The notes under the pieces are model-generated. The model had not been told where the DNA came from. It ran no database searches and was given only the letters and a program-made list of their open reading frames with translations. Of a stretch of 64,000 nucleotides of DNA, positions 1 to 59,972 are shown piece by piece. Source of the stretch: Winogradskyella eximia. Lineage in GTDB: Bacteria > Bacteroidota > Bacteroidia > Flavobacteriales > Flavobacteriaceae. A program made the translations under genes and the position numbers. The stretch covers positions 208,541 through 272,540 of the forward strand of contig NZ_QRDV01000004.1 of the NCBI RefSeq assembly GCF_003386165.1, given 5' to 3'. Position 1 is the first letter of the stretch, and the number at the start of each line of letters is the position of its first letter.

Positions 1-3000
1 ATCGAATTATTTTGAGAGGCATCAACTACTTCAAAATTTATATTTCTTGCAATACTAGAAGGTAAAACTGTAATAGTTCTCTCTTTAAAACAACCATTTG
101 TATTAGTGACTTTTACAGTATAGGTTCCTGGAGCATTTATTTCAATTTCCGAAGTATTTTCTCCTGTGGGCAACCATGCATAATAATAGTTACTAGGTGA
201 ATCGTCTATAACTCCTCCATTTAAAACAATTGTATCAGGAGAAGAGTTTAAACAATACAAGGTTTCAAATGTTGTTTCAATATTTGGTAACTCAAAAACT
301 GTTAGTTCTATTTCGCTAATACCATAACAAGCATTCGCATTTTCTACACGTCCATATATGATTTGATTGTATGGTATCGTATTGGTAAATGTTGTACCAA
401 TAGGGTTGGTTTCAACCAAAGCATCTTCATAAGTTTCATAAAATACTAAATCTAATCCTGTAGGTGTTCCTGCTAAAACAGTTTCATTAACATCAGTAAG
501 GTTAAAATTCATAAAGCCATCTTCGGTTCCATCGGTATCGCATAATTCTATACTTGCATTGTTTGAAGATGTTGTACTGACTTCTAAAGATATTTCACTA
601 AAATTAATACAACTAGAATCGGTGTTTGTTACTCTGGTATAAACAATTTGTGGGTTGAAAAAGTTATCAAACGAATCACCATCTATCTCATTTTCCTGAT
701 TCTGTGCATCCATTAGAGACAAATAATATTCTACCGTATTTTCAGTAGTATTGTCTGTGATTAATTCTAGGCTTTCGTTAATATTAAAAGTAGTGAAGCC
801 TTCTGGAATACCATCTTCATCACATTGTAAAATGGAAATATTATTTGCTACAGGAATTGGGTTTACTATTATATTAAAGCTCTCAGTTTTATAACAATCT
901 GTGAATGCGATGTTTTCAATTCTAACAAAAATAGTATCATTAAATGCAGCACTATTAGTGTAATTTAATGATAATGCCAATACATTGTCATCTGCGTTTT
1001 CTTGAGTTGCATGAAATGAAATTGCAGTTTCTGACTCCTCTTGATTTCCTCTGATTAGTGGTATTAGTTCTGCCAAATCTATTATAGCTATGCCATCCAA
1101 TTCATCACCAATATTATCACAAACTTCAATCGTATTTAATTCTGCTATTTGTGGAGTTTTAAATACTTCGAGGTTAAAAGAGTTGACATCAAAACAATTG
1201 GTATTATTTGAATTTTCTACACGAACAAATATCGTTTGTGGGTTTTCAATATTTGTATACGGAAACGTAATGTCATTGTCTCCAGAGGTTGCATCATCTT
1301 CAGTTTCAAAGTAACGCACATTATATTCTAAAGGATCTTGCGTTGATAATGCTTCGGGATTTTTATCACTAAAATCAAAACTAGATAAACCATCATTATC
1401 ATTGCCGTCACAAACTTTTACTTCTGTAAGCGGATGAGCTACAGGAATTTCAAAGACTCCAACGACAGCACTTCCTTCTATTGGACATTCACCATTGTTT
1501 GGTTCAATATATACCTCGTAAAAACCAGGTGTGTCCACAAACAACTGTGATGAGGTCTCTGTTAAAGGCAAGCCATTAAAGGACCAAGCGTAGTCTGCAC
1601 CAACAATATCAGTTGCTTCTAAAGTGTAACTGTCATTTGTGCATAATTTTAATTCTGTAGTACTAATGCCATTTTGAATAATATCTATTTCAGAATTAAA
1701 CAGAGATTGAATAAAGGGAGGTAAACCAATTCTACTTTTGTTTTGGTTGGTTCCGGTAATATCTAAAAGTATACCTTGCTCATTGTAATTTGAAGCCAAG
1801 CCATCTGCTTCAGGAAAATTTATAACACCCAAATATCTTGAAATGGTATTATTACCGGTATAACTCAATTGAGCTCTATAAATTTTTCGATCGATACCTA
1901 ATTGCAAAGCACCAGCAGATATTTGATTAGACGTGTGTATCGTTTCTATTGAATTTAGAATATCGTCACTTTCTAAATCCCATTGCATTACATAACTAGT
2001 GCCAGAACCTCCTTCACCTTCGCTAAGGGTAGCATAAACTTTTCGGTTTTCGGCAGAGAATTCCACACCATAAGGACTATTACCTAATGTTGGACTGTAA
2101 AGTTGTAGGTGGTTTGAAACGATTCCTGATTCATTATCAAAATCAAATAAATCTACACTACCAGGAGCATTTCCACCAGACTCGTTAGCATAACCAAAAT
2201 TTGCGGCAATAAGTTTTGAAGCATCAGGTGATGCTTTTAAATAGCCTAAGGCATTTCGTCTATAACCATCGATAGAAATTTCTGGACCTATTTGAGAAAT
2301 GACAGGAGTTGTGGATACACCATTAACATCAATCTTAAAAGCATAAAACGTATCTATAAATTGGGTAATGACCCAAAAAGAAGAACAATCTTCAGCTCTT
2401 ACTGCTGTGATTTTTTCGGAGCATTTATATTTAATTTCTTCGGGATCTGTAGGGTTGTAGGTTACTAAATGTATGTTTTTTTCAATAGGATCTACATCTC
2501 CCAAGCCACCATTAAGTGTCATGTCAATTAGAGAATAGTTGAAGCCATTATTAAAGCCATCGTCTTGGCCAGGAACAGTTCCACCTTGATCATAAGTACC
2601 TGAAAATTGATTAGGGTAGACTTCTGCATTATTGTGATGTGGCTCATCTACAGTAAAAAGATAGAACTTGTCTGGATCGTTTGGTTTGGGAACAATAAGA
2701 CCTGAAGACGTACTTGATGGATCACCTAAAAGTCCTGTGCCTCCAAAATAATTACCATTTGGCATTATTTGATGGTTGCTATTCCAAACCGTTTGTCCAT
2801 CAGAATAAAATAATAAATTTCCTTCTGAATCAGAAATCGATGTACACCCTTCTAGAGTATCTATCTGACCATCCGTAATTGCTGTTACTGAACCATTTTG
2901 GGCATTAAATTGCAGCCCAGCATTGTCTCCAAAATACCAAAATGAAGCTTCATTTTGAGAGAAAATTTGGAAGCTAATAACGAGTAAGACATATACTAAA

Positions 3001-3110: not shown

Positions 3111-3938
3111 TTATAAATCTCTCTTTTTTAATAATTGATAAGATAAAAAGATGAAAATAGCAGACCAACCTAAAACAATAGCAATCTCGTACCAATGCAC
3201 GGCGTAATCGTAGGCAATGTCTGCTTTGTCCGGAAACTTGGTCATTACAATTCTTCGGAAAGGCTCGTCAATTAACTTATACATAGACTCTAAAGGGAAA
3301 AATCTTTTGATGTTAAAAGCTAAATCCATCGAATTGGTTTGCCATGATAATAGTCCAAAAATGATCCATTCTAAAATATAAAGTATGAATAAAAAACCCA
3401 ATGCAAATGCAGACCGTTTTACTAACATGCCTAAAAATAAACACAAACTAAAGAAACCAACTAGTTTTACAAAATAGGCAAGTAAAAATTCAACCTCTCT
3501 AAAAATGATTGAAGCCTCTGTGTAACTCGAATAATATAAACCAATAAAAAATGTCGCTAAACCAATTAAAATAGTAGCACAAAGTGAGAAAAACACAATG
3601 GTATAGAATTTTGAAAGAATAAATTCCTTTTTGCTTAAACCATCAATGAGGTTTTGTTTTAGAGTTTTGTTGCTGTACTCATTTCCAATCATGCTTACCA
3701 CAACTATGGCAAAGAAGAATTTAAACTGTGAGGCAAAGAAGGTTGTGATATGCCAAATTACAGGAAAGTTGAAAATACCCAACTCGCCTAGTTCTAAAGT
3801 GAAAAAACCGAAAAAATTTATCTTTATAGAAGATAGAATTAATACTGTAAATGGTAATATAAAAGAGATAATTATTAAAACTTTACTAGCTTTATTAAGC
3901 CAAAGTTTTTGCAATTCGAGTTGTATGAGACGTAACAT
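3111..3938 (-). CDS. ABC-2 type transporter permease
   Basis: A 275-aa, very hydrophobic protein with about six membrane segments. The first helix is near residues 20-40 (LIIISFILPFTVLILS); others are near 70-90, 105-135, 150-175, 178-200 and 245-265. Length and layout fit the permease subunit of a two-component ABC-2 exporter (NosY/CcmB-like group). It lies 59 bp downstream of the ATP-binding subunit on the same strand, so the two form an operon read from 4894 to 3111. The cargo cannot be told from sequence; gliding (GldA/GldF-like), antibiotic or lipid export are all possible. The protein is shorter than the gliding GldG subunit and no gldG-like gene is adjacent. Confidence 0.85.
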   Translation of the reverse strand: MLRLIQLELQKLWLNKASKVLIIISFILPFTVLILSSIKINFFGFFTLELGELGIFNFPVIWHITTFFASQFKFFFAIVVVSMIGNEYSNKTLKQNLIDGLSKKEFILSKFYTIVFFSLCATILIGLATFFIGLYYSSYTEASIIFREVEFLLAYFVKLVGFFSLCLFLGMLVKRSAFALGFLFILYILEWIIFGLLSWQTNSMDLAFNIKRFFPLESMYKLIDEPFRRIVMTKFPDKADIAYDYAVHWYEIAIVLGWSAIFIFLSYQLLKKRDL

Positions 3939-3997
3939 ATTTTGATTGGTTTTGCATTAGCCTTTTCAAAAAGGATGTATGCTGATTTTTGATTGGT

Positions 3998-4894
3998 TTA
4001 TTGGTTATCCGTTAGTTGTAAAAACTGCTCCTCTAAACTCTCTTTTCGTTTTACAAGATGTGATAGAAAAATGCCTTTTTCAAACATTAATTTATTAAAA
4101 TCTGAAGCAGACATAGGTTCATTTAAAAAGGCTGTAATGAGTTCTCCTTCTATTTTTACTTTGCCAATATTTGAGTGTGATTCTAAAACATCTAATAATT
4201 CTTGATGTTTTTCAGCCTTTAATTCAAAGAAACCGTGGCTGCTTATCATTTCATCTACACGGCCAGAATATAATTTTTCTCCTTTACGCAATACCACAAC
4301 ATGTGAGCATACTTTTTCAACTTCATCTAAAAGATGTGAAGCTAAGAGGATGGTTGTGCCTTTGGCAGCAATATCTTTTATAATTTCACGAATCTGATGG
4401 ATACCTTGCGGATCTAAACCGTTTGTAGGCTCATCTAAAATTAGAATTTCTGGATCGTTAAGTAGGGCAGAAGCAATGGCTAAACGTTGTTTCATCCCTA
4501 AAGAATAGGTTCTAAATTTGTGTGTTTTTCTGTCTAATAACCCAACAACTGCAAGTTTTTCTTCTATTTTACTGTGGTCAACACCTTTTATCCTGCAGAC
4601 TAGCTTAAGGTTTTGTTCAGCTGTCATGTATGGATAAAAGTTAGGACGTTCAATTATAGCGCCAACTTGCTTTAAAGCATTGTGCGTTGTAATATTGCCA
4701 TCAAACCAATGGAAATCTCCTTGTGTTTTATTTACCACATTTAGTACAATACCTAAAGTAGTAGATTTACCGCTACCATTAGGCCCTAAAATACCATAGA
4801 CATTGCCTTTATTTATAGTAAAACTTAAATCTTTTACGGCAGTTAAATGCCCAAATTTCTTTGTGAGATTATTAATGGTGAGGATTGGTTCCAA
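3998..4894 (-). CDS. ABC transporter ATP-binding protein
   Basis: A 298-aa cytoplasmic ATPase. Walker A GPNGSGKST is near residue 40, the signature YSLGMKQRLAIA near 130, Walker B ILILDEPTNGLDP near 155, and the switch histidine in LLASHLL near 187. The C-terminal ~80 residues are the variable tail typical of ABC-2 exporter ATPases. It powers the permease encoded just downstream. The gene starts at the ATG at 4894. A 215-bp divergent spacer separates it from the plus-strand gene at 5110, so each must have its own promoter in that spacer. Confidence 0.93.
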   Translation of the reverse strand: MEPILTINNLTKKFGHLTAVKDLSFTINKGNVYGILGPNGSGKSTTLGIVLNVVNKTQGDFHWFDGNITTHNALKQVGAIIERPNFYPYMTAEQNLKLVCRIKGVDHSKIEEKLAVVGLLDRKTHKFRTYSLGMKQRLAIASALLNDPEILILDEPTNGLDPQGIHQIREIIKDIAAKGTTILLASHLLDEVEKVCSHVVVLRKGEKLYSGRVDEMISSHGFFELKAEKHQELLDVLESHSNIGKVKIEGELITAFLNEPMSASDFNKLMFEKGIFLSHLVKRKESLEEQFLQLTDNQ

Positions 4895-5109
4895 AATTAG
4901 TTGGTTTTTAGATGCTGAAGTAACTTCAGCAAAAGTTGGTTATGTGTATAAGACGATTAATGCTTTTATTTGTTACAAGAATTTATATTTAATGATAAAT
5001 TATGAATCGGAATTGAGTGATTCAAATCAATCAATAGCTTTAAAAGATAATTTAATCAATTTTAAAAGTAACCTTTTTTTATTCATTTTAAAACCCTTAA
5101 ATTTAGCAC

Positions 5110-6174
5110 ATGAGTGAGGATTTAAAAATATCGAAGCGAAAACCAACATACCCTATTTCTGAAAAATTAGATACGTATTTATCTAAATATAGAAGAAATA
5201 TAGATTTACCTATTTTTTATTCTGATTTACTGCGCTTTCAAGGTTCTGTTGTTGTTTATGATAAAGATGATGTAGATACGCTTTGGGTACGTGTATATTA
5301 CAATGAGTTTGAACGCGAAGAAATTGATATTAGTTTAAAACAAGTGTATTCAAGTTTAATTTCAGATGGTGGGACCAGCATCTTAAAATACCTTAGTGTA
5401 GATGCTATTGATTTTTGCACATTCGGTAATTCTAAACCGTTCAGAATAAAAGTGAGAAATATTCTTAATGATAATTTTACTCATTTTTACGTTAAAACAG
5501 CAGATGCTTCAAGGGTTTATGGATTAGAACTTGAACAAATGTTATCGCCATATCAAATCAATTTTTTGGTTTGTAAAGATACGTTGATTGAAGAGCATAT
5601 TGCCGGTATTCCTGGGGATGAGTTTATAAAGAATATGTTGCCAGATTGTAGTTCATCTGAAAAAGCGCAAATAGCCAAAGAATTTGTGAAGTTTAATGAA
5701 CGTTGTTTAATTAGGCTTTTGGGTGATATGCGCTCTTATAACTATGTGATAGTTCCAACGCATGATTTTGACCATGTTGTATTTAAAATTAGAGCTATAG
5801 ATTTTGATCAGCAATGTTATGAAGGCAATTTAAAAATATATAGACCACAGTTTTTTAAAGAGAATTTTAAGATGGTAGAGTTGGTGCGCGAAAAAATCCA
5901 GGCAGAATCTATACATCAGTATAAAATTGAAGAACGCTCTATTGTTGCTAAAAGAATGATTAGTTATCACACACGCTTAAACGCATTGCTAGATTGCATG
6001 GAAGCAGATGAAATTTCCATTAAAAAGCACATTGATTTAATTAAAGAAGATATCTATAATTATACCTTGGATTTAAACTTTAGAAAAAGTAAAAATATGG
6101 GAGAGGTACTTAAAAATGCACTCGATTTTGTAAAGCGAAATTATGAAGATGTTAGTCTGAAACGTTTTACTTAA
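5110..6174 (+). CDS. Conserved hypothetical with kinase-fold-like motifs
   Basis: A 354-aa soluble protein with no signal peptide or membrane segment; I do not recognise a named family. The middle of the chain has an order of motifs resembling an atypical protein/small-molecule kinase: a lysine in FYVKTADAS (about residue 129), a hinge-like IEEHIAGIPGDEF (160-172), LGDMRSYNYVIV (about 204-215, D and N at catalytic-loop spacing) and AIDFDQQ (about 229-236, metal-binding-like). The last 60 residues are helical. The gene stops at 6174 and overlaps the convergent gene by 4 bp. The kinase reading is inference from motif spacing only. Confidence 0.6.
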   Translation: MSEDLKISKRKPTYPISEKLDTYLSKYRRNIDLPIFYSDLLRFQGSVVVYDKDDVDTLWVRVYYNEFEREEIDISLKQVYSSLISDGGTSILKYLSVDAIDFCTFGNSKPFRIKVRNILNDNFTHFYVKTADASRVYGLELEQMLSPYQINFLVCKDTLIEEHIAGIPGDEFIKNMLPDCSSSEKAQIAKEFVKFNERCLIRLLGDMRSYNYVIVPTHDFDHVVFKIRAIDFDQQCYEGNLKIYRPQFFKENFKMVELVREKIQAESIHQYKIEERSIVAKRMISYHTRLNALLDCMEADEISIKKHIDLIKEDIYNYTLDLNFRKSKNMGEVLKNALDFVKRNYEDVSLKRFT

Positions 6175-51304: not shown

Positions 51305-51676
51305 TTAGACATGTTGGTCGATTAAAATAGCATTACCATCAGGATCTAAAACCACAAAGCTTGCAGGTCCAGAAGTGGTTTCATCGGCTTCGTGTTCTAG
51401 TGTGATGTTTTTATTTTTTAGATGTTTCTGAATGGTACGCACATCATCAAATTTTTCGAGTGCATTGGCGTGTTGGTCCCAACCAGGATTAAAGGTAAGT
51501 ATATTGTTTTCAAACATGCCTTGAAACAAACCCACTAAGGATTCTCCATTTTTCATAATGAGATAGTTCTGTTCTATACTTCCAGCAAATACTGAAAATC
51601 CTAAAGTTTCGTAAAATGTTTGTGAGGCTTTTATATCCTTTACCGCAAGACTTATTGAAAATGCGCCTAGTTTCAT
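51305..51676 (-). CDS. VOC (glyoxalase/bleomycin-resistance) family protein
   Basis: A 123-aa single VOC module: [20 protein letters not shown] (about 4-23), [19 protein letters not shown] (about 45-63), a helix [20 protein letters not shown] and the closing strand [17 protein letters not shown] (about 107-123). The family binds metal ions and small substrates; the substrate is unknown. The first ~110 bp of this gene with its 5' flank are duplicated at 54034-54145, where they form the start of a chimeric fragment. Confidence 0.9.
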
Positions 51677-52015
51677 AATTTAGAGTTTAAGTTAGTACTT
51701 AAAGGTAATGAAAGTTTTAATTATGGCGTTTAGTAGATGTGTTTTAATACTAGGTATCATAACCGAGTACACACAGCACCAGCAATTAGTTATGCAAATC
51801 TTAAGGTTATAAGCCTGTATTATTAATCTAGATATTAGTATTATGCCTTACGCAGTGTATTCTGTTATGCTATAAGCTTGTTTTAAGTACCTAATAAGCA
51901 TGCTATAACCACGCTATAACCTGTATTGTTAAATTTTTTATATTGCTGTATTATAGGTATTTAGCTTAAAAATTGATGTTATCGCACAACAGACCGAAAT
52001 TATCCCTTTAGTAGG
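51677..52015. other. Gene-free stretch with scattered short repeats
   Basis: About 340 bp without a gene. It contains the word GCTATAA in several copies (for example around 51880, 51904 and 51915) and fragments like AGCAATTAGTTATGC near 51780 that resemble the right end of the A-type repeats. It borders the first repeat of the cassette-like array and may be remnants of one or more decayed repeats. Confidence 0.4.
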
Positions 52016-52112: not shown

Positions 52113-52643
52113 CTACAGTTTTTTATCGAACGTTTCTATTATAACTTCATCATTTTCGCATAAAGGTGTTACTATTTCAGTTTTTAGTTTTGCCTTAATA
52201 TTTAATTCTAAAAATCTATCAGAACGGTCTGTGTTCCAAGTTGAGTAACTTCCTGTCCAAATAACGTCAAACGCTCCATTTCCATCTTTTTTAATGGCTA
52301 TTTTGTTATTATTAATAGATTCTCCATCTCTAAAAGTGACCATAGTGAATAACATATCATCAGTCCAGCCATCTTTTAAATCCAATTCTAATTCAGATAG
52401 TTCATTTATATTTATCGGATAATTTGCGAGCATTATTGATATTGGGTCATCTAAAAATTCGTCTGCTTCATCATCCAAGTTTTCTCTAACTAAATCCAGA
52501 TTCTCAAAATGAATAATTAGAATATTTAATTTGTCAGTCAGTTTTCGCAGTTCAATTTCTCCAAACGAATTTGGAACATAACTGAAGTCAGTAGTTTTAT
52601 TATTATCAGAATCCTTTATGGTGAATTTTACGTATTGTTTCAT
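52113..52643 (-). CDS. Unknown acidic protein in repeat-bracketed cassette
   Basis: A 176-aa acidic soluble protein; I recognise no family. It is rich in beta-strand patterns (YVKFTIKDSDNNKTTDFSYV, IEFDVIW-type stretches such as GAFDVIWTGSYSTW) and has an Asp/Glu cluster near 55-70 (DDEADEFLDDP). The gene is bracketed by a private perfect inverted repeat TTACCTACA (52109-52117) and TGTAGGTAA (52650-52658); the stop codon lies within the left copy. That placement mirrors an integron cassette. Possible roles include immunity or inhibitor protein, but nothing here proves it. Confidence 0.6.
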   Translation of the reverse strand: MKQYVKFTIKDSDNNKTTDFSYVPNSFGEIELRKLTDKLNILIIHFENLDLVRENLDDEADEFLDDPISIMLANYPININELSELELDLKDGWTDDMLFTMVTFRDGESINNNKIAIKKDGNGAFDVIWTGSYSTWNTDRSDRFLELNIKAKLKTEIVTPLCENDEVIIETFDKKL

Positions 52644-52656
52644 TCAAATTGTAGGT

Positions 52657-52767
52657 AATGTCTTGCGGATATAAAAACGTTTCAAGGTTCTATATCCAAC
52701 GTTAAACGAAGGTAGCTTTTTAGAGGTTTAAAGCCAAGTGACTCACTCTTAATTGTCTAGTTTTTTA
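52657..52767. repeat. C-type repeat, copy C3 (attC-like hairpin)
   Basis: AATGTCTTGCGGATATA, loop, CTATATCC and AACGTTAAACGAAGG, then the conserved trailer ending TCTAGTTTTTTAT. Closely matches copies C1 and C2. It separates the 176-aa and 137-aa genes, and its end forms the stop of the latter. Confidence 0.75.
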
Positions 52768-53178
52768 TTCTTTCCTGTCTTTAGGGTTCAATAAATAATG
52801 TTTGGCTTTTCTAAATTTATTTGAATTAAAAAATGTGTAAAAATCAGACATTAAAGCACCTTCAGAAGCTTGGACTTCAATTCCACTTTGAATATTGAGT
52901 ATTTCAGTTTGATTTTCTTGGCAGAAAACTAAAAAACGGTTTAATCCATATAAGTTATATCCAGCAGATATTTCCAATGGTTTTATTGCGCAATGAATTT
53001 CAACAATCAGCGAGTTTTCAATTTCGGTATTTATAAACTTAAAAAGGAAACCATCTTTAGCTAAATAAAGTTCTGAATTTCGGTTTCCATTTAATTCAAT
53101 TAGTGGATTGAAATATTTTTCAACTTTACTTTTTTCAATAGGATTAACAGTTTGTAGTTTGAATTTTGGTATTTCCAT
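52765..53178 (-). CDS. Unknown small protein in the cassette-like array
   Basis: A 137-aa protein from the ATG at 53178 (MEIPKFKLQTVNPIEKSK); an upstream ATG at 53238 would extend into an A-type repeat. The chain has KYFNPLIELNGNRNSELYLA (about 20-39), CAIKPLEISAGYNLYGLNRF and a C-terminal basic helix (FRKAKHYLLNPKDRKE). No family recognised; it might be a SMI1/KNR4- or SUKH-like immunity fold but lacks a clear signature. It lies between C3 and A2, so its ends are repeat boundaries too, but no private inverted repeat was found around it. Confidence 0.55.
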   Translation of the reverse strand: MEIPKFKLQTVNPIEKSKVEKYFNPLIELNGNRNSELYLAKDGFLFKFINTEIENSLIVEIHCAIKPLEISAGYNLYGLNRFLVFCQENQTEILNIQSGIEVQASEGALMSDFYTFFNSNKFRKAKHYLLNPKDRKE

Positions 53179-53200
53179 CGTATAGTTACTCCAAATTAAT

Positions 53201-53352
53201 GCCACGTTTGGTGTATGGTTCGTTGCGTGGTTGAGCAACTAATTTAGTAAATAAATTACAGATAGACCCGAGCGCAGTGAACTGGCGAAGCAATATTCCG
53301 TAGGAATGTTCGTAAGTCGGCAGTGACCAAGCAATTAATTATACATGGTGTG
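53201..53352. repeat. A-type palindromic repeat, copy A2
   Basis: Left arm GTGTATGGTTCGTTGC (53211-53226) pairs with the complement of right arm GCAATTAATTATACAT (53331-53346) at 11 of 16 positions. An inner hairpin ATTCC-GTA-GGAAT lies at 53295-53307. The right end leads into GTATGTA, the private repeat of the next gene. Confidence 0.7.
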
Positions 53353-53364
53353 GTATGTAGTTTA

Positions 53365-53718
53365 TTACCATCTGCTATAATTATATTCAATATTCTTGTT
53401 TTGTAAGTAGTCCTTTATATTTTCAAAGCAAGAGTCTTCTCCTCCAAATTCACTATTAATTTTATTCAATAAATTTTGATTCATATTTTCGGCATCCAAT
53501 ATGTCAAGTTCAGCAATGAGTTTGTTTTTATTTTCTTTATCAATCGTTAAATAGAATTCAACACCAGAGTCAGCGAACATTGCTTCGGCAGTTTTATTAA
53601 TATCACAACAAACAATTACTACTTCATCATAATCGTTGACCTTAATTTTTACATTTCTATAGAAATCAATTCTTCCATTTTCTTTAAGTGTTTTAAAATT
53701 GTAAAGAGTTAATTCCAT
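53365..53718 (-). CDS. Unknown small protein in repeat-bracketed cassette
   Basis: A 117-aa protein from the ATG at 53718 (MELTLYNFKTLKENGRIDFY). A TTG start 36 bp further upstream would place its first codon inside the bracket repeat and is less likely. Alternating strands such as VKINDYDEVVIVCCDINKTA-type (NYDEVVIVCCDIN) and FYLTIDKENKNKLIAELDIL suggest an alpha/beta fold. No family recognised. The gene is bracketed by GTATGTA (53353-53359) and TACATAC (53746-53752), a private inverted repeat, and by the A2 and C2 repeats. Confidence 0.55.
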   Translation of the reverse strand: MELTLYNFKTLKENGRIDFYRNVKIKVNDYDEVVIVCCDINKTAEAMFADSGVEFYLTIDKENKNKLIAELDILDAENMNQNLLNKINSEFGGEDSCFENIKDYLQNKNIEYNYSRW

Positions 53719-53752
53719 TTTGAAGGGTTTCTGATTTTTCCTAATTACATAC

Positions 53753-53866
53753 AATGTCTCGCGGATATAAAATCATTCCAAGGTTCTATATCCATAGTTA
53801 AACGAAGGTCGTTTTTTTGAGATTTAAAGTCAAGTGGCTCGCTCTTAATTATCTAGTTTTTTTTAT
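53753..53866. repeat. C-type repeat, copy C2
   Basis: AATGTCTCGCGGATATA, loop, CTATATCC, ATAGTTAAACGAAGG and the trailer ending TCTAGTTTTTTTTAT. The similarity to C1 continues through the neighbouring fragment to about 54016 (end of the M14 peptidase gene), so this copy is part of a ~260-bp duplication. Confidence 0.8.
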
Positions 53867-53899
53867 CTTCAATTGTTAATAAAGTAAAACAAGAGTTTA

Positions 53900-54115
53900 T
53901 TACAACTCATAAGCGTTATTATTTACAAAGAACACAGCGTTCACTAAAAAGAGTTTTCCATTTTTCCAGAAGCTTCTAAAAAGCGTGTTGCTTACCATGT
54001 AAATAAAATTACCGGCTCCTATTTGATCTTCTTCAAATCCTAAAGTGTCGTAAAATGTTTGTGAGGTTTTTATATCCTTTACCGCAAGGCTTATTGAAAA
54101 TGATCTTAGTTTCAT
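53900..54115 (-). pseudogene. Chimeric fragment: VOC gene start fused to M14 peptidase end
   Basis: A 71-codon frame. Residues 1-28 ([20 protein letters not shown]...) copy the start of the VOC gene at 51305-51676. Residues ~33-71 (GAGNFIYMVSNTLFRSFWKN...NNNAYEL) copy the last residues of the M14 peptidase at 57492-59972. DNA similarity covers both sides: 53753-54016 with 57346-57608, and 54034-54145 with 51595-51706. The junction is near 54017-54034. Neither domain is complete, so it is almost surely non-functional debris. It is bracketed by TTAAACGAA (53798-53806) and TTCGTTTAA (54187-54195). Confidence 0.85.
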
Positions 54116-54186
54116 AATTTAGAGTTTAAGTTAGTACTTAAAGGTCTTTTTGTAACTGAGTGGTTAAATTCTAAGATAATTTGTGG

Positions 54187-54322
54187 TTCGTTTAACGTTG
54201 TTGTATATGGTTTGTTGCGTGGTTTAGCACGTAATTTAGCAAATAAAAACCGAATAGAAAATCCGCGAGGATTTTCGTAAGTAGGCTAGAACTAGCAATA
54301 AATTATATACGTTGTTGGCAAA
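54187..54322. repeat. A-type palindromic repeat, copy A3 (attC-like)
   Basis: A 136-bp imperfect palindrome: left arm GTATATGGTTTGTTGC (54203-54218) matches the complement of the right arm GCAATAAATTATATAC (54295-54310) at 13 of 16 positions. A perfect inner hairpin GAAAATCC-GCGA-GGATTTTC lies at 54257-54276. The left edge holds GTTTAAC (fits RYYYAAC) and the right edge GTTGGCA (near GTTRRRY). This is the size and layout of a long attC site. Confidence 0.65.
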
Positions 54323-54329
54323 TCGTTTT

Positions 54330-54935
54330 TTATTTCACGTATTCTAATTGCTCTCTCATTGTTGAAAAGAATCCTTGAAACCATTTAATCATTTTCGCAT
54401 TATCGTTTATTAAATGAATATGTCCGTCATCATTCATCCAGTTACCATTCATTGGAAAGTGAATTTTATTTATATCGATAATTTTTGACTTTTCTTCATT
54501 TAAAATTATTGCGGCGAAACCTTCTTCTTCATCCTCTTCTATCAATTCTGTAAAAGTGTTTTCAATTGCTTGGTTAGAGGTAATATGCCAATGTGGCTGT
54601 GGATGTTTTTCGTTAGGATTATTATAATCATCCCATTCTGCACGAAATAATTGATTCTTTTTATTGTCGCTAGCATCTCCTTGAAAAATGGAAATTGTTA
54701 TGAAAGAATTTTTATCTTCGAATCGGATTTCTAAATAAACCCAATATTCATCGAACCATTTTAATACTGAAACTTCTGAACCATAATTTTTATAATTATT
54801 TAATGCTTTAGAAATGTTGTTTCCCTTTAATTCAAATCGGTTTGCTTTTGAAAGATGTAAAAAGAAAGTAGATTCTAAAAAAAAAGACTTACAGCTTTTA
54901 TTAATTTCTTCTATGAATTTTAATTGCTCTATCAT
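54330..54935 (-). CDS. Unknown partner protein of the DNA methyltransferase
   Basis: A 201-aa soluble protein that follows the methyltransferase gene by 9 bp and so is co-transcribed with it. I recognise no family. Notable stretches: WFDEYWVYLEIRFEDK (about 60-75), ITISIFQGDASDNKKNQL (about 79-96), RAEWDDYNNPNEKHPQPHWH (about 98-117, with a clustered HxxPHWH), and IHFPMNGNWMNDDGHIHLI (about 157-175). The paired histidine clusters could bind a metal or form a nuclease-like centre, but that is a guess. Together with the methyltransferase it fills one cassette between A3 and C1. Confidence 0.6.
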   Translation of the reverse strand: MIEQLKFIEEINKSCKSFFLESTFFLHLSKANRFELKGNNISKALNNYKNYGSEVSVLKWFDEYWVYLEIRFEDKNSFITISIFQGDASDNKKNQLFRAEWDDYNNPNEKHPQPHWHITSNQAIENTFTELIEEDEEEGFAAIILNEEKSKIIDINKIHFPMNGNWMNDDGHIHLINDNAKMIKWFQGFFSTMREQLEYVK

Positions 54936-54944
54936 AGAATGGAT

Positions 54945-57275
54945 TTAAGTATTTGGATAGAAGTATTTTTCTAAAATATTATCAGATATAGTTTTAGTAT
55001 ATATATTTCCTTCTGAAAGTTCTTTTCCAATTTCAACTAACCTTTGATATCCATCGGAATTTTTGACATCATCTAAATTTACGTTTGGTATAGGTATATC
55101 TTTTGTGTATTTTTTACCCAAATCCCAACCAGAAAGTAATTCTTTAGAATAAATAGATAATAGATTATCAAAGAAAGAGCTTGAGAAAACTGCTAAATAG
55201 AAATAATAGTCTTTTTCACTAAATTCTTTTTTAGGAATCCAAGCATTCCCTCTTTCAACAACAAAGCCACCTTGTGAATCAATTGCAAAAGAACCTGATT
55301 TTCCAAATTCAGCGGAAATTAATTTTCGAGTAGGTTTTCTTAACCAAGCTCTATGCTCACTTAAATGCCACCAATTTGAATCATCTTTTCTTGCTCTATT
55401 TGATAATTCTGCTTTGGAATGTAATATGTTGTTATAAAATGAAGGAACCTTTTCTTCAAATTCTTCTTCTGTTTGTATTTTTATACCATCTTCTCCATAT
55501 GGATACCACACGTAACTAGTAATTTGAAGTTTTCCATTTATAAATGAATCATTTTCTGTTGAAGGTCTAAAATACTCTTTTTCCTCTTCAGGTAAATTAG
55601 AATATTCATTGACTGATATTTTAAAAACTTTATTATTACCTGTTCGTATCCCTTGTTTAACGTTGAAAATGTCAATAACTCTTGAGAGCCTTTTTTCAAC
55701 CACAAATCTCTCAATACCTTTGAAAAGATTATGATTTTTTATTGAGATTGGTGTCCAACTTTCTTTTAATATTGGAAATGAAATAGGTTGGTAGATACTA
55801 AAATTAGGTTTGTCTAAAGTAACTTGGTTATTATAAGTTGTCTTTCTAAAATCGCGTAAAGCTTCTTGGGCAACTCCTTTTTCATTTCTCGTCCATATAA
55901 TAGTTGGTATATGGTTAGTTTTAGGTTTTTTTCCAATTATAAAACTAACATCTGTTAATGCATCTTCAAAAATAAAATTTCCTAATTTACCTAGTAGTTT
56001 TATGTCTACTAAATCGTTGGTGTCAGTACGTAATTTTGAGTAAGAATCTAAAGTAAGTATTGAAGATGGTATAACGCATCCAATAACACCATTTTCATTA
56101 AGATGATTTAATGCCTTGTAGAAAAAAGCACTAGCTTGATTGGGTTTTTTACCAATAAAACTATTACCCAAGGCTTGACGAACTGCATCTCTGTTTTCTT
56201 TATTATTTAGCAAATCCCATGAGGAAAATGGTGGATTCATTAGGATTAAATCAAAATCATTATCCCAATCTTCCAACAAAGAATCACCGACTAATTTTAA
56301 GCTAAAATCTAATCTGTCCTGCCAAATAGTTCTTTTTTCATAGGTAAGTAAAAATCTTGAGGTATTAATTGCAGTTTCTGAAACATCCCAACCTAAAATT
56401 TCTACATTACCTTGGAAATCTAGCTCAATTAATTGTTTTAATACTTCAACTAAAAATTCAGATGAACCACAAGCTGGGTCAAGTATCTTTAATTTATCCG
56501 TTTGTAAATTTATGTTTCTTAATGAATTCTCAACAATAGTCCTAGATAAGAATGGTGGTGTGTAATGAATGCTAGAATATAAATTTGTTTTAGTACTTAA
56601 AGAACTTGATGAACCACCAAATAAGTCTCTTTGTGGATTGAAAAATAAAACTTCTTTTTGGGCTTCTTGAAATAAGATTCCGGCAGAATGTCTAATTATC
56701 AAATCAAGTTCTGGTTTAACGTTTGAAATTCCATTTTGGATTTGGTCAATATAATAATCAAATCCATCTGGTATAACTAAATTTTCAAGTCCCCATTTTT
56801 CAGTATTAATATTATGGACATCATCTTCCAAGCTGGTTAATAACCCAAAAAGTAAATTTAAGGCTTCTACTGGATTAGATTTTTCAAAAGTTAAGTTTCT
56901 AAATTGTCGAAAAATATCAATAACAAAAGGGACTAAATCGTTAGATGATTTATAACTTTTTGATAATAAATAATTATAAAATTTATTAAAATTTTCAGAA
57001 ACAATTTTATGTGAAACTGTTTCAGTTTTATCATTTAACCAATTGTGTATTTGAACATTATCATCTTTTACAATGAGAAAGTTTTTTGTGCTACTTGACC
57101 ATGATTTGGAATAAAGGTCAATATTTTCAATTTCTAAATTTGCTGTTTGTAGGCAAAAATCTCCATTTCCACCATTTAACATCATATGACCTCCATTATC
57201 ACTTAAAGGGTTAAGATGTACAGGAAGTAGACCTAGTTGTTGTTTCCAAACTTGTATGTCAAATAGGTTTTTCAT
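54945..57275 (-). CDS. N-6 adenine-type DNA methyltransferase
   Basis: A 776-aa protein. The SAM motif I is ILDPACGSSEFLVEVLKQL (about 264-282) and the catalytic motif IV is LILMNPPFSSWD (about 346-357, NPPF as in gamma-class adenine methylases). Further conserved stretches are GVIGCVIPSSILTL and FIFEDALTDVSFIIG. The C-terminal ~230 residues (GIRTGNNKVFKI, YVWYPYGEDGI, WLRKPTRKLISAEFG) look like a TaqI/Eco57I-type target-recognition domain. Residues 1-230 are unassigned; I see no PD-(D/E)xK pattern. It may be a lone modification enzyme, a type IIG-like enzyme, or one half of a two-gene defence unit with the 201-aa protein. Confidence 0.85.
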   Translation of the reverse strand: MKNLFDIQVWKQQLGLLPVHLNPLSDNGGHMMLNGGNGDFCLQTANLEIENIDLYSKSWSSSTKNFLIVKDDNVQIHNWLNDKTETVSHKIVSENFNKFYNYLLSKSYKSSNDLVPFVIDIFRQFRNLTFEKSNPVEALNLLFGLLTSLEDDVHNINTEKWGLENLVIPDGFDYYIDQIQNGISNVKPELDLIIRHSAGILFQEAQKEVLFFNPQRDLFGGSSSSLSTKTNLYSSIHYTPPFLSRTIVENSLRNINLQTDKLKILDPACGSSEFLVEVLKQLIELDFQGNVEILGWDVSETAINTSRFLLTYEKRTIWQDRLDFSLKLVGDSLLEDWDNDFDLILMNPPFSSWDLLNNKENRDAVRQALGNSFIGKKPNQASAFFYKALNHLNENGVIGCVIPSSILTLDSYSKLRTDTNDLVDIKLLGKLGNFIFEDALTDVSFIIGKKPKTNHIPTIIWTRNEKGVAQEALRDFRKTTYNNQVTLDKPNFSIYQPISFPILKESWTPISIKNHNLFKGIERFVVEKRLSRVIDIFNVKQGIRTGNNKVFKISVNEYSNLPEEEKEYFRPSTENDSFINGKLQITSYVWYPYGEDGIKIQTEEEFEEKVPSFYNNILHSKAELSNRARKDDSNWWHLSEHRAWLRKPTRKLISAEFGKSGSFAIDSQGGFVVERGNAWIPKKEFSEKDYYFYLAVFSSSFFDNLLSIYSKELLSGWDLGKKYTKDIPIPNVNLDDVKNSDGYQRLVEIGKELSEGNIYTKTISDNILEKYFYPNT

Positions 57276-57345
57276 TCGGAAACAAAAATATAATTAATTT
57301 TTAGCTATATGATAATTATTTGAGGTGTTTTTTCAAAATGTTTGC

Positions 57346-57458
57346 CAATGTCTCGCGGATATAAAAGCGTTTCAAAGTTTTATATCCAACGTTAAACGAA
57401 GGTAGTTTTTTTGAGATTTAAAGTCAAGTGACTCACTCTTAATTATCTAGTTTTTTAT
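57346..57458. repeat. C-type repeat, copy C1 (attC-like hairpin)
   Basis: A perfect 10-bp stem GGATATAAAA (57357-57366) and TTTTATATCC (57378-57387), flanked by TTTGCCAA (57341-57348, private repeat of the methyltransferase cassette) and AACGTTAAACGAA (57388-57400, GTTAAAC fits GTTRRRY). From 57341 to 57400 the site is 60 bp, the size of a standard attC. The conserved trailer continues to 57458. Confidence 0.75.
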
Positions 57459-57491
57459 CAGCAATTGTTAATAAAGTAAAACAAGAGTTTA

Positions 57492-59972
57492 TTACAACTC
57501 ATAAGCGTTATTATTTACAAAGAACACAGCGTTCACTAAAAAGAGTTTTCCATTTTCCCAGAAACTTCTAAAAAGCGTGTTATCTACCATGTAAATAAAA
57601 CTACCGCTTCCCATGGGTTCTTCGCCAAATACTAAGGTTTGGTCTAATGCTTTTAAAGCCTGTTGGCCTGCAAAACCAGAAAACACTTTGGTGTCATTTA
57701 AGTATGCCACGTTATAGCCGTTTTCTAATATATTGTATGCAGAGCTTCCTAATTTAAGCGTGAAATACTGATCGCTGTAACCAAATGCCATAGGATGCGT
57801 TGCATCTACTTTGGTATTAAAAATGGCTCCTGTAATAAGGTGATTGCTATACTCGCGTTCGCGATCTGCATAAGCCGTTAGGTTTTCTTTTTGGTCTTCA
57901 TCTTCAGGTGTTTTAGTACTCAGGCTAAAGCCTTCTTTACCTGCAAAACTTCGCAATGCACCATCTATAGCAATTACTTTTCCGCCAGATTTTACCCAAT
58001 CTTTTAGTTTAGTTAAGTTGTTTTCAGTGAACACTTTTCCGTAATAGCCATTTGGCAGAATTAATACATTGTATTTGTTTAAATTGGTTTTGCTAAAATC
58101 ATCCGTATTTATAGAGGTCAACGGATAGTGTAATTGTTGCTCAAAGAAATGCCATAGTTCACCATAGCTTAAAGACGATGTGCCTTCTCCAGAAAGAATA
58201 GCCACCTTTTGTTTGTTTACTAATTTAATATCTGGTGAGCCCATATCTGGAGTGCTTTGTGAAAATCCAGAATTAATTGCTGTTAAAGGTTGTGCATGCT
58301 CTTGTGCAATGGTATTTAATTTTGAAACCATTTTTTCAATATGCTTATTGTCGCCTTTGGTGATGATGAGTGACCCACGTTCAAATTTGGTGTTGTTAGA
58401 AGTGAATGGTTTCTCGGTAAACCTTACTTTAAAATCTTGCTTTAATAGTTCGGCTAAAAACTGAGCGTCTTCCATAGAATTCCACTTGCTTACATAGCCA
58501 TAAGCATCGTTTAAAGTTTGTAATGCTTTACGACTCGCTAATTTATTGCTGCTAACATTAGCCGTTGTTGCAATAGCATCTAATCCATAGGCATAAGGCA
58601 GTGACCAAGCCGTAATATCGTAAGTTAAAGAATCTGAAAGTTTGGTGTTTGGTTCAAATAATACCTTTACCATTTTACCTTTAGGCTGATTGCTATGCAC
58701 CACTACCGCATTTGCATCTACATTAAAACTACCTTGTTTTCCTGTGGCATAATGGTAACCAGAAACCTTAGTACTTGTCGCATTTTCGAAAGCAATATGG
58801 TGTTTGTTTAAAAGCGTTTTTAGGCTATTCAATTTATCTTCATTGCCTTTTAAGACGTAGCTTTTGTATTTTAAGTTGGTATTATTAAAGAATTTACCAA
58901 ACTCAGTATTTAATTGTTTTGCATTTTTTGATGCCATTTCAACCGTAGAAATTCCTGTGGTTGTATGGTGTGTTAAGCGTTCTACTAATGTTAACACATG
59001 GCCTTCGTCATTCAAAATGCCTAAACCAGCCATACCGTGACCACCTTGCTCATAAGTCATTCCCATGGCTCCCATAAACGTTGGGTAGGTGTCTCCATAA
59101 CTTGGATACAATAAATCGAAACGTTCTCTGGTAAAGAATAGCCAACCTTCTTTGTCAAAATACTTAGCGTGATTTTGTCCTATTTGTGTTTGAAAATCGC
59201 GTTGCCAATCTGTAATGATTTCATGAAACGGTTCTGCTGCAGGTGCAAAATAGTAAGGCTCGTTAATGCCTTGCTCATGAAAATCGACATGCACATGAGG
59301 CATCCATTTGTTATAAACTTCTAAACGTTGTTGTGTTTCTACTTGTGTTGCCCAAACCCAATCTCTATTTAAATCAAAGAGGTAATGATTTGGTCGTCCG
59401 GCTGGCCAAGGTTCGTTGTGTTCGCTAGCTTGTTTGTCAACATCATATGGTTCACTTTTTGTTCTGTTATACCAATTTACATAACGATCGCGACCATCAG
59501 GATTGACGCTTGGGTCAATAATTACAACCGTGTTTTTAAGTAATTCTTGTTGCTCAGTTAGTAATTTATATAAGGTAAGCATGGACGCTTCAGAACTCGA
59601 AGCTTCATTACCATGTACATTATAACTTAACCAAACAATGGCAATATCTGTTGCTGTTGGTTCGCCTTCTAATAAACCTGCATTTTTTAAATTGTTTTCT
59701 CTAATAGTTTCGAGTTGCTTCATATTAGCTTCACTCGTTACAAAAGCCACATACAAATCTCTACGCTCGTTGGTTTTTCCGTAGTTTTCTAATTTTACTT
59801 GATGAGGTGCTGCTTTTTCAACGGCTTTAAAATAATCAATAACCTGATGATTTCTGCTAAATTGTGTACCAATATCATAACCTAAAAAGTCCGTTGGAGA
59901 TGGAATGGTTTGAGCTGATGTTAAGGATAGACTGCCAAAAACGACAAAAAGCGCTAAGATGAATTTTTGCAT
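57492..59972 (-). CDS. M14-family zinc carboxypeptidase-like secreted protein
   Basis: An 826-aa protein. Signal peptide 1-20 (ending LTSAQ). The peptidase domain has the zinc motif HGNE in LSYNVHGNEASSSEASM (about 116-132), DPSVNPDGRDRYVNWYN (about 152-168, substrate-binding) and the third zinc ligand in HVHVDFHEQG (about 232-241). A catalytic-Glu region follows near 310-320 (MGMTYEQGGHGM). The C-terminal half has a type 1 glutamine-amidotransferase-like part near 600-680 (NKYNVLILPNGYYG). It likely degrades peptides outside the cell. Its last ~40 codons are duplicated in the chimeric fragment at 53900-54115. Confidence 0.9.
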   Translation of the reverse strand: MQKFILALFVVFGSLSLTSAQTIPSPTDFLGYDIGTQFSRNHQVIDYFKAVEKAAPHQVKLENYGKTNERRDLYVAFVTSEANMKQLETIRENNLKNAGLLEGEPTATDIAIVWLSYNVHGNEASSSEASMLTLYKLLTEQQELLKNTVVIIDPSVNPDGRDRYVNWYNRTKSEPYDVDKQASEHNEPWPAGRPNHYLFDLNRDWVWATQVETQQRLEVYNKWMPHVHVDFHEQGINEPYYFAPAAEPFHEIITDWQRDFQTQIGQNHAKYFDKEGWLFFTRERFDLLYPSYGDTYPTFMGAMGMTYEQGGHGMAGLGILNDEGHVLTLVERLTHHTTTGISTVEMASKNAKQLNTEFGKFFNNTNLKYKSYVLKGNEDKLNSLKTLLNKHHIAFENATSTKVSGYHYATGKQGSFNVDANAVVVHSNQPKGKMVKVLFEPNTKLSDSLTYDITAWSLPYAYGLDAIATTANVSSNKLASRKALQTLNDAYGYVSKWNSMEDAQFLAELLKQDFKVRFTEKPFTSNNTKFERGSLIITKGDNKHIEKMVSKLNTIAQEHAQPLTAINSGFSQSTPDMGSPDIKLVNKQKVAILSGEGTSSLSYGELWHFFEQQLHYPLTSINTDDFSKTNLNKYNVLILPNGYYGKVFTENNLTKLKDWVKSGGKVIAIDGALRSFAGKEGFSLSTKTPEDEDQKENLTAYADREREYSNHLITGAIFNTKVDATHPMAFGYSDQYFTLKLGSSAYNILENGYNVAYLNDTKVFSGFAGQQALKALDQTLVFGEEPMGSGSFIYMVDNTLFRSFWENGKLFLVNAVFFVNNNAYEL

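What the first reader, a model, noticed from the sequence alone, without database searches (positions are those of the whole stretch)
54330..57275. Two-gene DNA methyltransferase plus unknown protein module in one cassette
A 776-aa adenine-type methyltransferase (DPACGSS, NPPF) is followed after 9 bp by a 201-aa protein with two histidine clusters and no known family. The pair sits alone between cassette-type repeats, far from any other restriction or BREX gene. Cargo of such cassettes is often defence. The partner could be a nuclease, an inhibitor or a specificity factor, giving an undescribed two-gene system.
Basis: inference. Interest (0 to 1): 0.75.

Follow-up and report, generated by a model that had tools for sequence, protein, structure and literature searches.

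The report
Mobile DNA-methylase and partner-protein pair
A DNA-marking enzyme and a small protein of unknown family sit side by side as a two-gene unit in every locus examined, and while the enzyme's DNA-reading part gets swapped the small partner stays with the rest, which hints at a compact, still undescribed defence or epigenetic system.

Summary
On the minus strand a 776-aa N6-adenine methyltransferase is followed after 9 bp by a 201-aa protein without a match in Pfam, NCBIfam, PADLOC, PHROGs or PDB sequences. The pair is a real module: in 26 of 26 evaluable Bacteroidota loci the methyltransferase gene or its remnant lies directly upstream of the partner, and in samples of 299 and 395 genomes both genes hit the same genomes (two in each). 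Two Alphaproteobacteria plasmids carry a 28%-identical methyltransferase followed by a distant partner homologue. The methyltransferase is a CamA/M.BseCI-like enzyme with its own recognition domain plus about 230 N-terminal residues lacking a conserved nuclease site. The recognition domain has been exchanged independently of the methyltransferase body and the partner (p-AU 6e-5 or lower), which argues against an ordinary type II restriction enzyme. I favour a minimal R-M/BREX-like module in which the methyltransferase marks self and picks the site and the partner is effector or gate. Function is untested; PADLOC hits lie nearby in at least 5 of 26 loci, without a baseline. In the window and one other genome the pair is cargo of a repeat-flanked cassette.

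The parts
54945..57275 (-). N6-adenine DNA methyltransferase, 776 aa; residues 1-110 N-terminal part of unknown role, about 112-230 helical, 231-500 catalytic (NPPF 347-350), about 535-690 target-recognition domain (boundaries chosen by me), 700-776 C-terminal helices
   Evidence: Pfam N6_Mtase E 1.6e-15; PDB profile hits CamA 5.5e-28 and M.BseCI 4.3e-25; VIA Z 23.0 to CamA over model residues 194-774, rmsd 5.0, 507 aligned
54330..54935 (-). partner protein, 201 aa, no known family; model with N-terminal helix, seven successive strands, then a conserved loop, a short strand and C-terminal helices
   Evidence: 0 families in Pfam, PADLOC, NCBIfam, PHROGs; AF2 mean pLDDT 81.5; no Foldseek match at E<=0.001 in PDB or BFVD
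54165..54330 (.). cassette-type repeat directly behind the partner gene
   Evidence: 40 matches in the own genome, itself included; 90% match over 105 bp about 20 bp behind the partner gene in L006
57326..57458 (.). 133-nt repeat (D1) upstream of the methyltransferase gene; further copies at 52636-52768 and 53732-53864

Best explanation
A minimal two-gene, methylation-based self/non-self module. The methyltransferase binds its site through its own exchangeable target-recognition domain and methylates adenine in host DNA (shown by homology only). The partner works on or with the methyltransferase body rather than reading the site itself, and acts as effector or gate when the site is unmethylated, as on incoming phage or plasmid DNA (inferred). 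It would thus work like BREX or a split type IIG/IIL enzyme, in which one recognition domain serves both marking and attack. The nature of the attack (cleavage, replication block, toxicity) is not known; the conserved R98, E100, H115 and H159 suggest a catalytic or metal site in the partner (inference).
For: Obligate pairing: the methyltransferase or its remnant lies directly upstream of the partner in 26 of 26 evaluable loci; the same two genomes are hit by either gene in 299 and in 395 genomes. Deep conservation: Alphaproteobacteria pairs, hhalign 92%, E 6.7e-7 for the partner alignment against P0001. Recognition-domain exchange without partner exchange: types I and II are rejected as clades on the partner tree (p-AU 1.05e-5, 1.03e-5) and on the body tree (6.0e-5, 3.3e-7); L027+L031 are 100/100 sisters in both and rejected on the recognition-domain data (2.6e-5). 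In the nine loci that I looked at one by one, the partner's nearest relative is the body's nearest in 8 and the recognition domain's nearest in 0. No other gene family occurs in more than 3 of 28 neighbourhoods. PADLOC hits nearby in at least 5 of 26 loci.
Against: No enzymatic activity, methylation or phage phenotype was measured. No nuclease motif was recognised in either protein. Many neighbours with Pfam names are housekeeping genes, and no background rate for PADLOC hits was computed; three of the five loci owe their count wholly or partly to PADLOC candidate (PDC) models. A partial correlation of the partner with the recognition domain, given the body, remains (0.27, reached in 8 of 2000 permutations; partner with body, given the recognition domain, 0.41, 0 of 2000). 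On the partner tree the type labels, though scattered (7 changes, least possible 2), are still more clustered than shuffled labels (mean 9.7, as low in 4 of 200), and one origin of type III is not ruled out there. No match in the phage or plasmid collections for the window's partner itself at E 1e-5.
Confidence: 0.42

Rival explanations
1. The partner is an activating or regulatory subunit of a solitary (epigenetic) methyltransferase; the pair marks host DNA and has no attack function, like CamA with an extra subunit.
For: Closest structure is CamA, described as an orphan methyltransferase (abstract of PMC8187626); the partner follows the body and over all 23 loci correlates most with methyltransferase residues 700-776 (r 0.81; without L032 and L033 0.76, tied with residues 1-230 at 0.77), which may also be mere linkage; many named neighbours are housekeeping genes.
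Against: Patchy distribution (2 of 395 genomes of the phylum) and cassette carriage are unlike a host regulator; repeated exchange of the recognition domain is typical of systems under phage pressure (recalled knowledge of type I, IIG and BREX systems).
Confidence: 0.25
2. Toxin-antitoxin-like pair: the partner is a toxin (for instance an RNase of TumE-like shape) and the methyltransferase holds it in check or senses invasion.
For: Partner carries R-x-E-W-D ... PHWH in the order seen in two TumE sequences (R-[WY]-D-N-A-P-H-H ... PHHKH); TumE is described as helices packed on a seven-stranded antiparallel sheet (PMC10584680, passages), and the partner model has seven strands before the PHWH loop (sheet order not seen).
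Against: No TumE hit by Pfam in 26 partner sequences; hhalign probability 0.1-0.9% (with a two-sequence template).
Confidence: 0.15
3. Ordinary type II restriction-modification: the partner is a site-specific endonuclease of unrecognised fold that cuts the same site that the methyltransferase protects.
For: Size, order and lack of similarity are typical of type II endonucleases (recalled knowledge); one locus keeps an intact methyltransferase with a broken partner (L034). The weak partial correlation of partner with recognition domain (0.27) would fit.
Against: Recognition domains have been exchanged between methyltransferases whose partners stayed with the body; a separate site-specific endonuclease would then cut unprotected host DNA unless the types share one target.
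Confidence: 0.1

Closest known systems
CamA (C. difficile) and M.BseCI, N6-adenine methyltransferases
   Same: Catalytic domain, recognition domain and C-terminal helices align (CamA from residue 194 or 191, M.BseCI from about 230, to 774-776) at about 21-22% identity.
   Different: The window enzyme has about 230 extra N-terminal residues and a constant 201-aa neighbour; CamA is described as an orphan, unassociated with a restriction endonuclease (abstract of PMC8187626).
BREX PglX/BrxX
   Same: Helical N-terminal part plus catalytic and recognition domains align (8q56 Z 21.2, model 113-776, rmsd 3.8, 564 aligned); in type I BREX, site binding by BrxX is required for both methylation and defence (start of abstract of PMC11842806).
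   Different: No third gene family is constant beside the pair (none in more than 3 of 28 neighbourhoods).
Type IIG enzymes (DrdV, BpuSI)
   Same: Their alignments start at model residues 27-39 (Z 18.2-18.6, rmsd 7.8-11.3), among the few that reach the N-terminal part; PacII M.1M.2S (7vru, from residue 30, Z 20.6) is another.
   Different: No D, E or K is invariant in the first 110 residues across two phyla (5 sequences), so no PD-(D/E)xK site is supported; a second protein is present.
TumE (DUF6516) toxins
   Same: Order of an R/D strand and a PHxH loop; strands-and-helices build.
   Different: No significant sequence relation; paired with a methyltransferase here.

Membership tests
N6-adenine DNA methyltransferase with C-terminal recognition domain | SAM motif, NPPF and C-terminal recognition domain in that order | tested here: met
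   D266-P-x-C-G-S and N347-P-P-F invariant in 24 of 24 rows; CamA and M.BseCI matched over 224-762 and 231-762
Type IIG/IIL single-chain restriction enzyme | N-terminal PD-(D/E)xK nuclease with conserved catalytic residues | tested here: not met
   A7 (5 sequences, two phyla): no invariant D, E or K in the first 110 residues; D39 of the window is T or S in the Alphaproteobacteria. Rests on the alignment; activity not measured
BREX | PglZ, BrxC ATPase and further genes constantly beside the methyltransferase | tested here: not met
   No gene family besides the pair occurs in more than 3 of 28 neighbourhoods (I did not name the recurring ones); PADLOC table of 86 neighbours shows no BREX row among the 25 of 87 families displayed. 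Several contigs are short
Type II restriction-modification | Separate endonuclease matched to the methyltransferase's specificity | tested here: inconclusive
   Partner follows the body more than the recognition domain, which argues against; activity and motifs not measured
TumE toxin (PF20126) | Match to the family profile | tested here: not met
   Not among the 12 families matched by any of 26 partner sequences at E up to 10; hhalign probability under 1%
DUF2290 (PF10053) | Match to the family profile | tested here: not met
   Not among the 12 families; hhalign probability 0.1% with a single member
Anti-phage defence system | Protection against phage | not testable with these tools
   No bench data; only neighbourhood evidence

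The most novel reading that the evidence does not exclude
An undescribed minimal defence system of two genes, shared by Bacteroidota and Alphaproteobacteria, in which a CamA-like methyltransferase with an exchangeable recognition domain both marks self and aims a small effector of a family and possibly a fold not yet catalogued.
Probability: 0.35. Interest if true: 0.78.

Novelty: new variant of a known kind. Interest (0 to 1): 0.6.

Why it matters
If it is defence, it would be a very small methylation-based system that shares one recognition domain between marking and attack, which BREX does with a typical six genes (passage of PMC12839542); two genes of 3 kb make the open question of how such systems stop unmethylated DNA easy to test. 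If it is epigenetic, it would show an orphan-type methyltransferase with a conserved constant subunit.

Tried and rejected
Partner as a known family: Pfam, NCBIfam, PADLOC, PHROGs and PDB profile searches gave nothing. Fold search of the partner: Foldseek best E 0.026 in PDB (CapZ, probability 0.41) and 0.008 in BFVD (an uncharacterised siphovirus protein, probability 0.94 but TM-score 0.27/0.34); VIA best Z 7.2 to a Mediator chain and 7.1 to CapZ. This is inside the range that the tool gives for chance arrangements, so no fold claim is made. TumE and DUF2290, chosen from motif memory, were tested by hhalign and failed. Integron integrase family TIGR02249: no match over the cut-off in the own genome, so the cassettes are not shown to be a classic integron. 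Pairwise identity correlations alone do not separate body from recognition domain; the tree tests do. Papers on such a pair: 2 listed; 7 listed; none; 6 of 65 listed; on the cassettes: none; 6 listed. I saw titles and starts of abstracts, and passages of PMC12839542 and PMC10584680; none described this pair. That is a limited search of open-licence papers.

Rows dropped: L015 is the same locus as L006 (G245) and was left out from then on; G309 is L026. From the 23-row tests I left out L010 (frameshifted methyltransferase), L017 (contig starts in the partner), L023 (methyltransferase cut by the contig end), L030 (internal deletion fusing both genes) and L034 (broken partner). For the neighbour scan I gave 86 of 180 neighbouring ORFs, picked by hand, mostly the nearest, from 26 loci (L030 not included). 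The recognition-domain types were named by eye from the alignment before the trees, so their monophyly on the recognition-domain tree is by construction; the tests of types I and II on the other two trees are not. The three reverse tests (L027+L031, window+L008+L009, L021+L016) were chosen after seeing the trees, so their p-values are optimistic. The alignment window 535-690 and the nine loci inspected singly were also my choice.

Full report
What is there. The two ORFs are as described, on the minus strand: a 776-aa methyltransferase at 57275-54945 and, 9 bp on, a 201-aa protein at 54935-54330. The methyltransferase matches Pfam N6_Mtase (E 1.6e-15). The partner matches nothing in Pfam, PADLOC, NCBIfam or PHROGs.

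The pair is a module. Searching 299 genomes of the window's family, the partner and the methyltransferase at E<=1e-60 hit the same two genomes, the own one and G245. In 395 genomes of the phylum, the partner profile and the methyltransferase profile at E<=1e-30 again hit the same two genomes, the own one and G309. These are small numbers, but no genome had one gene without the other. A scan of genome contigs with the partner found 27 loci, all Bacteroidota by their record titles, among them Flavobacteriaceae, Sphingobacteriaceae, Cyclobacteriaceae, Weeksellaceae and Bacteroidales. One of them (L015) is G245 itself (L006), and L026 is G309. The methyltransferase, or a remnant of it, lies directly upstream of the partner in 26 of 26 loci where the contig reaches that far; this includes a frameshifted one (L010), one cut by the contig end (L023), a fused remnant (L030), and one with a broken partner (L034). 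In L017 the contig begins inside the partner. The gap is -8 to +11 bp in the 25 loci measured, the window included. No other gene family occurs in more than 3 of 28 neighbourhoods. Both genes evolve under purifying selection in the three unsaturated comparisons.

It reaches beyond the phylum. Two plasmids, of Sphingomonas sp. NY01 and Sinorhizobium mexicanum, carry a methyltransferase about 28% identical over 98% and 92% of the window's. In both, the next gene, overlapping its end, is a 'hypothetical protein' of 260 and 245 aa. Those two proteins share the partner's core, R-x-E-W ... H-P-H-W ... H-L-A ... W; hhalign of the partner alignment with the Sphingomonas protein gives 92% probability, E 6.7e-7 for this single comparison. 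W60, G86, K93, Q95, R98, E100, W101, P114, H115, W116, H159, W166 and W185 are invariant in the 12-sequence alignment across both phyla. No partner was found in the phage records or viral contigs.

What the methyltransferase is. By profile it matches solved CamA (5.5e-28) and M.BseCI (4.3e-25) from residue 224 and 231 on. The predicted model (mean pLDDT 80.5) aligns with CamA at Z 23.0 (507 residues, rmsd 5.0), M.BseCI at 22.3, BREX PglX at 21.2 from residue 113, and type IIG DrdV and BpuSI at 18.2-18.6 from residues 27-39 on, with large rmsd (7.8-11.3). So it is a complete enzyme with its own recognition domain, plus a helical part shared with PglX and others, plus about 110 N-terminal residues. 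In those 110 residues no D, E or K is invariant in five sequences of two phyla, so a PD-(D/E)xK nuclease is not supported there. The first 107 residues were hardly tested by the structure search (tool note).

What the partner is. The model (mean pLDDT 81.5) has an N-terminal helix, seven successive strands (25-102), a loop and short strand with the PHWH motif, and C-terminal helices. Residues 101-180 are less confident (ten-residue means 58-82; 75 for 111-120, 82 for 151-160, 58 for 161-170). No solved or viral structure matched convincingly.

Recognition domains move, partners do not. Twenty-three loci with both genes intact were compared (five loci dropped, see Tried and rejected). Residues 535-690 of the methyltransferase fall into three types, with L012 apart. 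Type I (window, L008, L011, L021, L027) and type II (L009, L013, L018, L031, L032, L033) are rejected as clades by the partner data (p-AU 1.05e-5 and 1.03e-5) and by methyltransferase residues 1-500 (6.0e-5 and 3.3e-7). Conversely L027+L031 are sisters with 100/100 support in both the partner and body trees but rejected on the recognition domain (2.6e-5), as are window+L008+L009 (body 98/96, partner 80/84; 7.3e-6) and L021+L016 (body 99/98, partner only 51/79; 1.5e-5); these three sets were picked after seeing the trees. In nine loci inspected singly, the partner's nearest relative by identity is the body's nearest in 8 (L009, L011, L013, L014, L018, L021, L027, L031) and the recognition domain's nearest in none; L016 fits neither. 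Against this, the type labels are still more clustered on the partner and body trees than shuffled ones (7 changes on each; shuffled means 9.7 and 9.6, as low in 4 and 6 of 200), and a weak partial correlation of partner with recognition domain remains (0.27, 8 of 2000 permutations), smaller than that with the body (0.41, 0 of 2000). Over all 23 loci, residues 700-776 correlate best with the partner (0.81); without L032 and L033 they tie with residues 1-230 (0.76 and 0.77). That could mean contact or simply physical linkage.

Reading. A separate endonuclease that reads its own site should not survive repeated change of the methyltransferase's specificity, unless the types share a target. The pattern fits a partner that works on, or through, the methyltransferase body. 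That leaves an effector aimed by the methyltransferase (favoured), a methyltransferase subunit, or a toxin held by it.

Context. Among 86 hand-picked of 180 neighbouring ORFs from 26 loci, PADLOC at E<=1e-10 shows Vsr in L016 (AbiEi and AbiEii also appear once each in the table; I assign them to L016 by position and look, not by a separate scan), a DpnI-like enzyme in L023, type III-A retron proteins and the candidate PDC-M30A in L029, the candidate PDC-M60A in L033 and the candidate PDC-M32A in L028. That is at least 5 of 26; only 25 of 87 families were displayed, and I have no baseline. Two loci (L006, L028) have an Mrr-type nuclease gene upstream (Mrr_cat_2, E 0.00098, below the curated cut-off, and 4e-6, above it; 35% identical to each other). 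Other neighbours include tRNA synthetase, NadA, HSP70 and SecD/SecF families (25 of 101 families displayed).

Cassette. The repeat at 54165-54330 has 40 matches in the own genome, itself included, several in clusters. The same repeat (90% over 105 bp) starts about 20 bp behind the partner gene in L006, with a 20-bp perfect piece about 100 bp upstream of its methyltransferase, and another copy (80% over 128 bp) lies 0.9 kb behind the pair in L009. So in at least two genomes of one family (the window's and G245) the pair looks like cassette cargo. No integron integrase over the family cut-off was found in the genome.

Verdict. A genuine, mobile and probably old two-gene module whose parts are known (methyltransferase) and unknown (partner). 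Defence is the best guess, not shown. I searched the literature only lightly and found no description.

Noticed in passing
window 53900-54115 (minus), with 51596-51706, 54035-54145, 53732-54060 and 57326-57652: A 71-aa chimeric ORF joins the start of the glyoxalase-like gene (51305-51676) to the end of the large gene at 57492-59972, which looks like an M14-type peptidase (name recalled, not searched); duplicated ends of both genes flank the cassette region, a scar of rearrangement or insertion.
   Followed up: partly
window 52113-53754 (minus): Three further small ORFs (129, 157 and 176 aa) without Pfam matches over cut-off sit in the neighbouring cassette units.
   Followed up: partly
G000 contigs C2, C4, C5, C8, C13, C14, C17, C18: A roughly 120-bp repeat occurs at least 40 times, often in clusters with copies about 0.6-2.3 kb apart (for example C4 137-143 kb and C14 1-5 kb), suggesting cassette arrays; no integron integrase over the family cut-off was found.
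   Followed up: partly
L030:3777-4286, L034:9378-9990, L010:7668-9990: Decay forms: an internal deletion fusing methyltransferase start and partner end, a broken partner behind an intact methyltransferase, and a methyltransferase frameshifted more than once (a metagenome-assembled genome, possibly sequencing error).
   Followed up: partly
L037:5528-5974 and 3932-5179: In the Sphingomonas plasmid a protein with a weak MerR-type match (E 0.0028, below cut-off) directly precedes the pair and a PIN-domain protein lies upstream.
   Followed up: no
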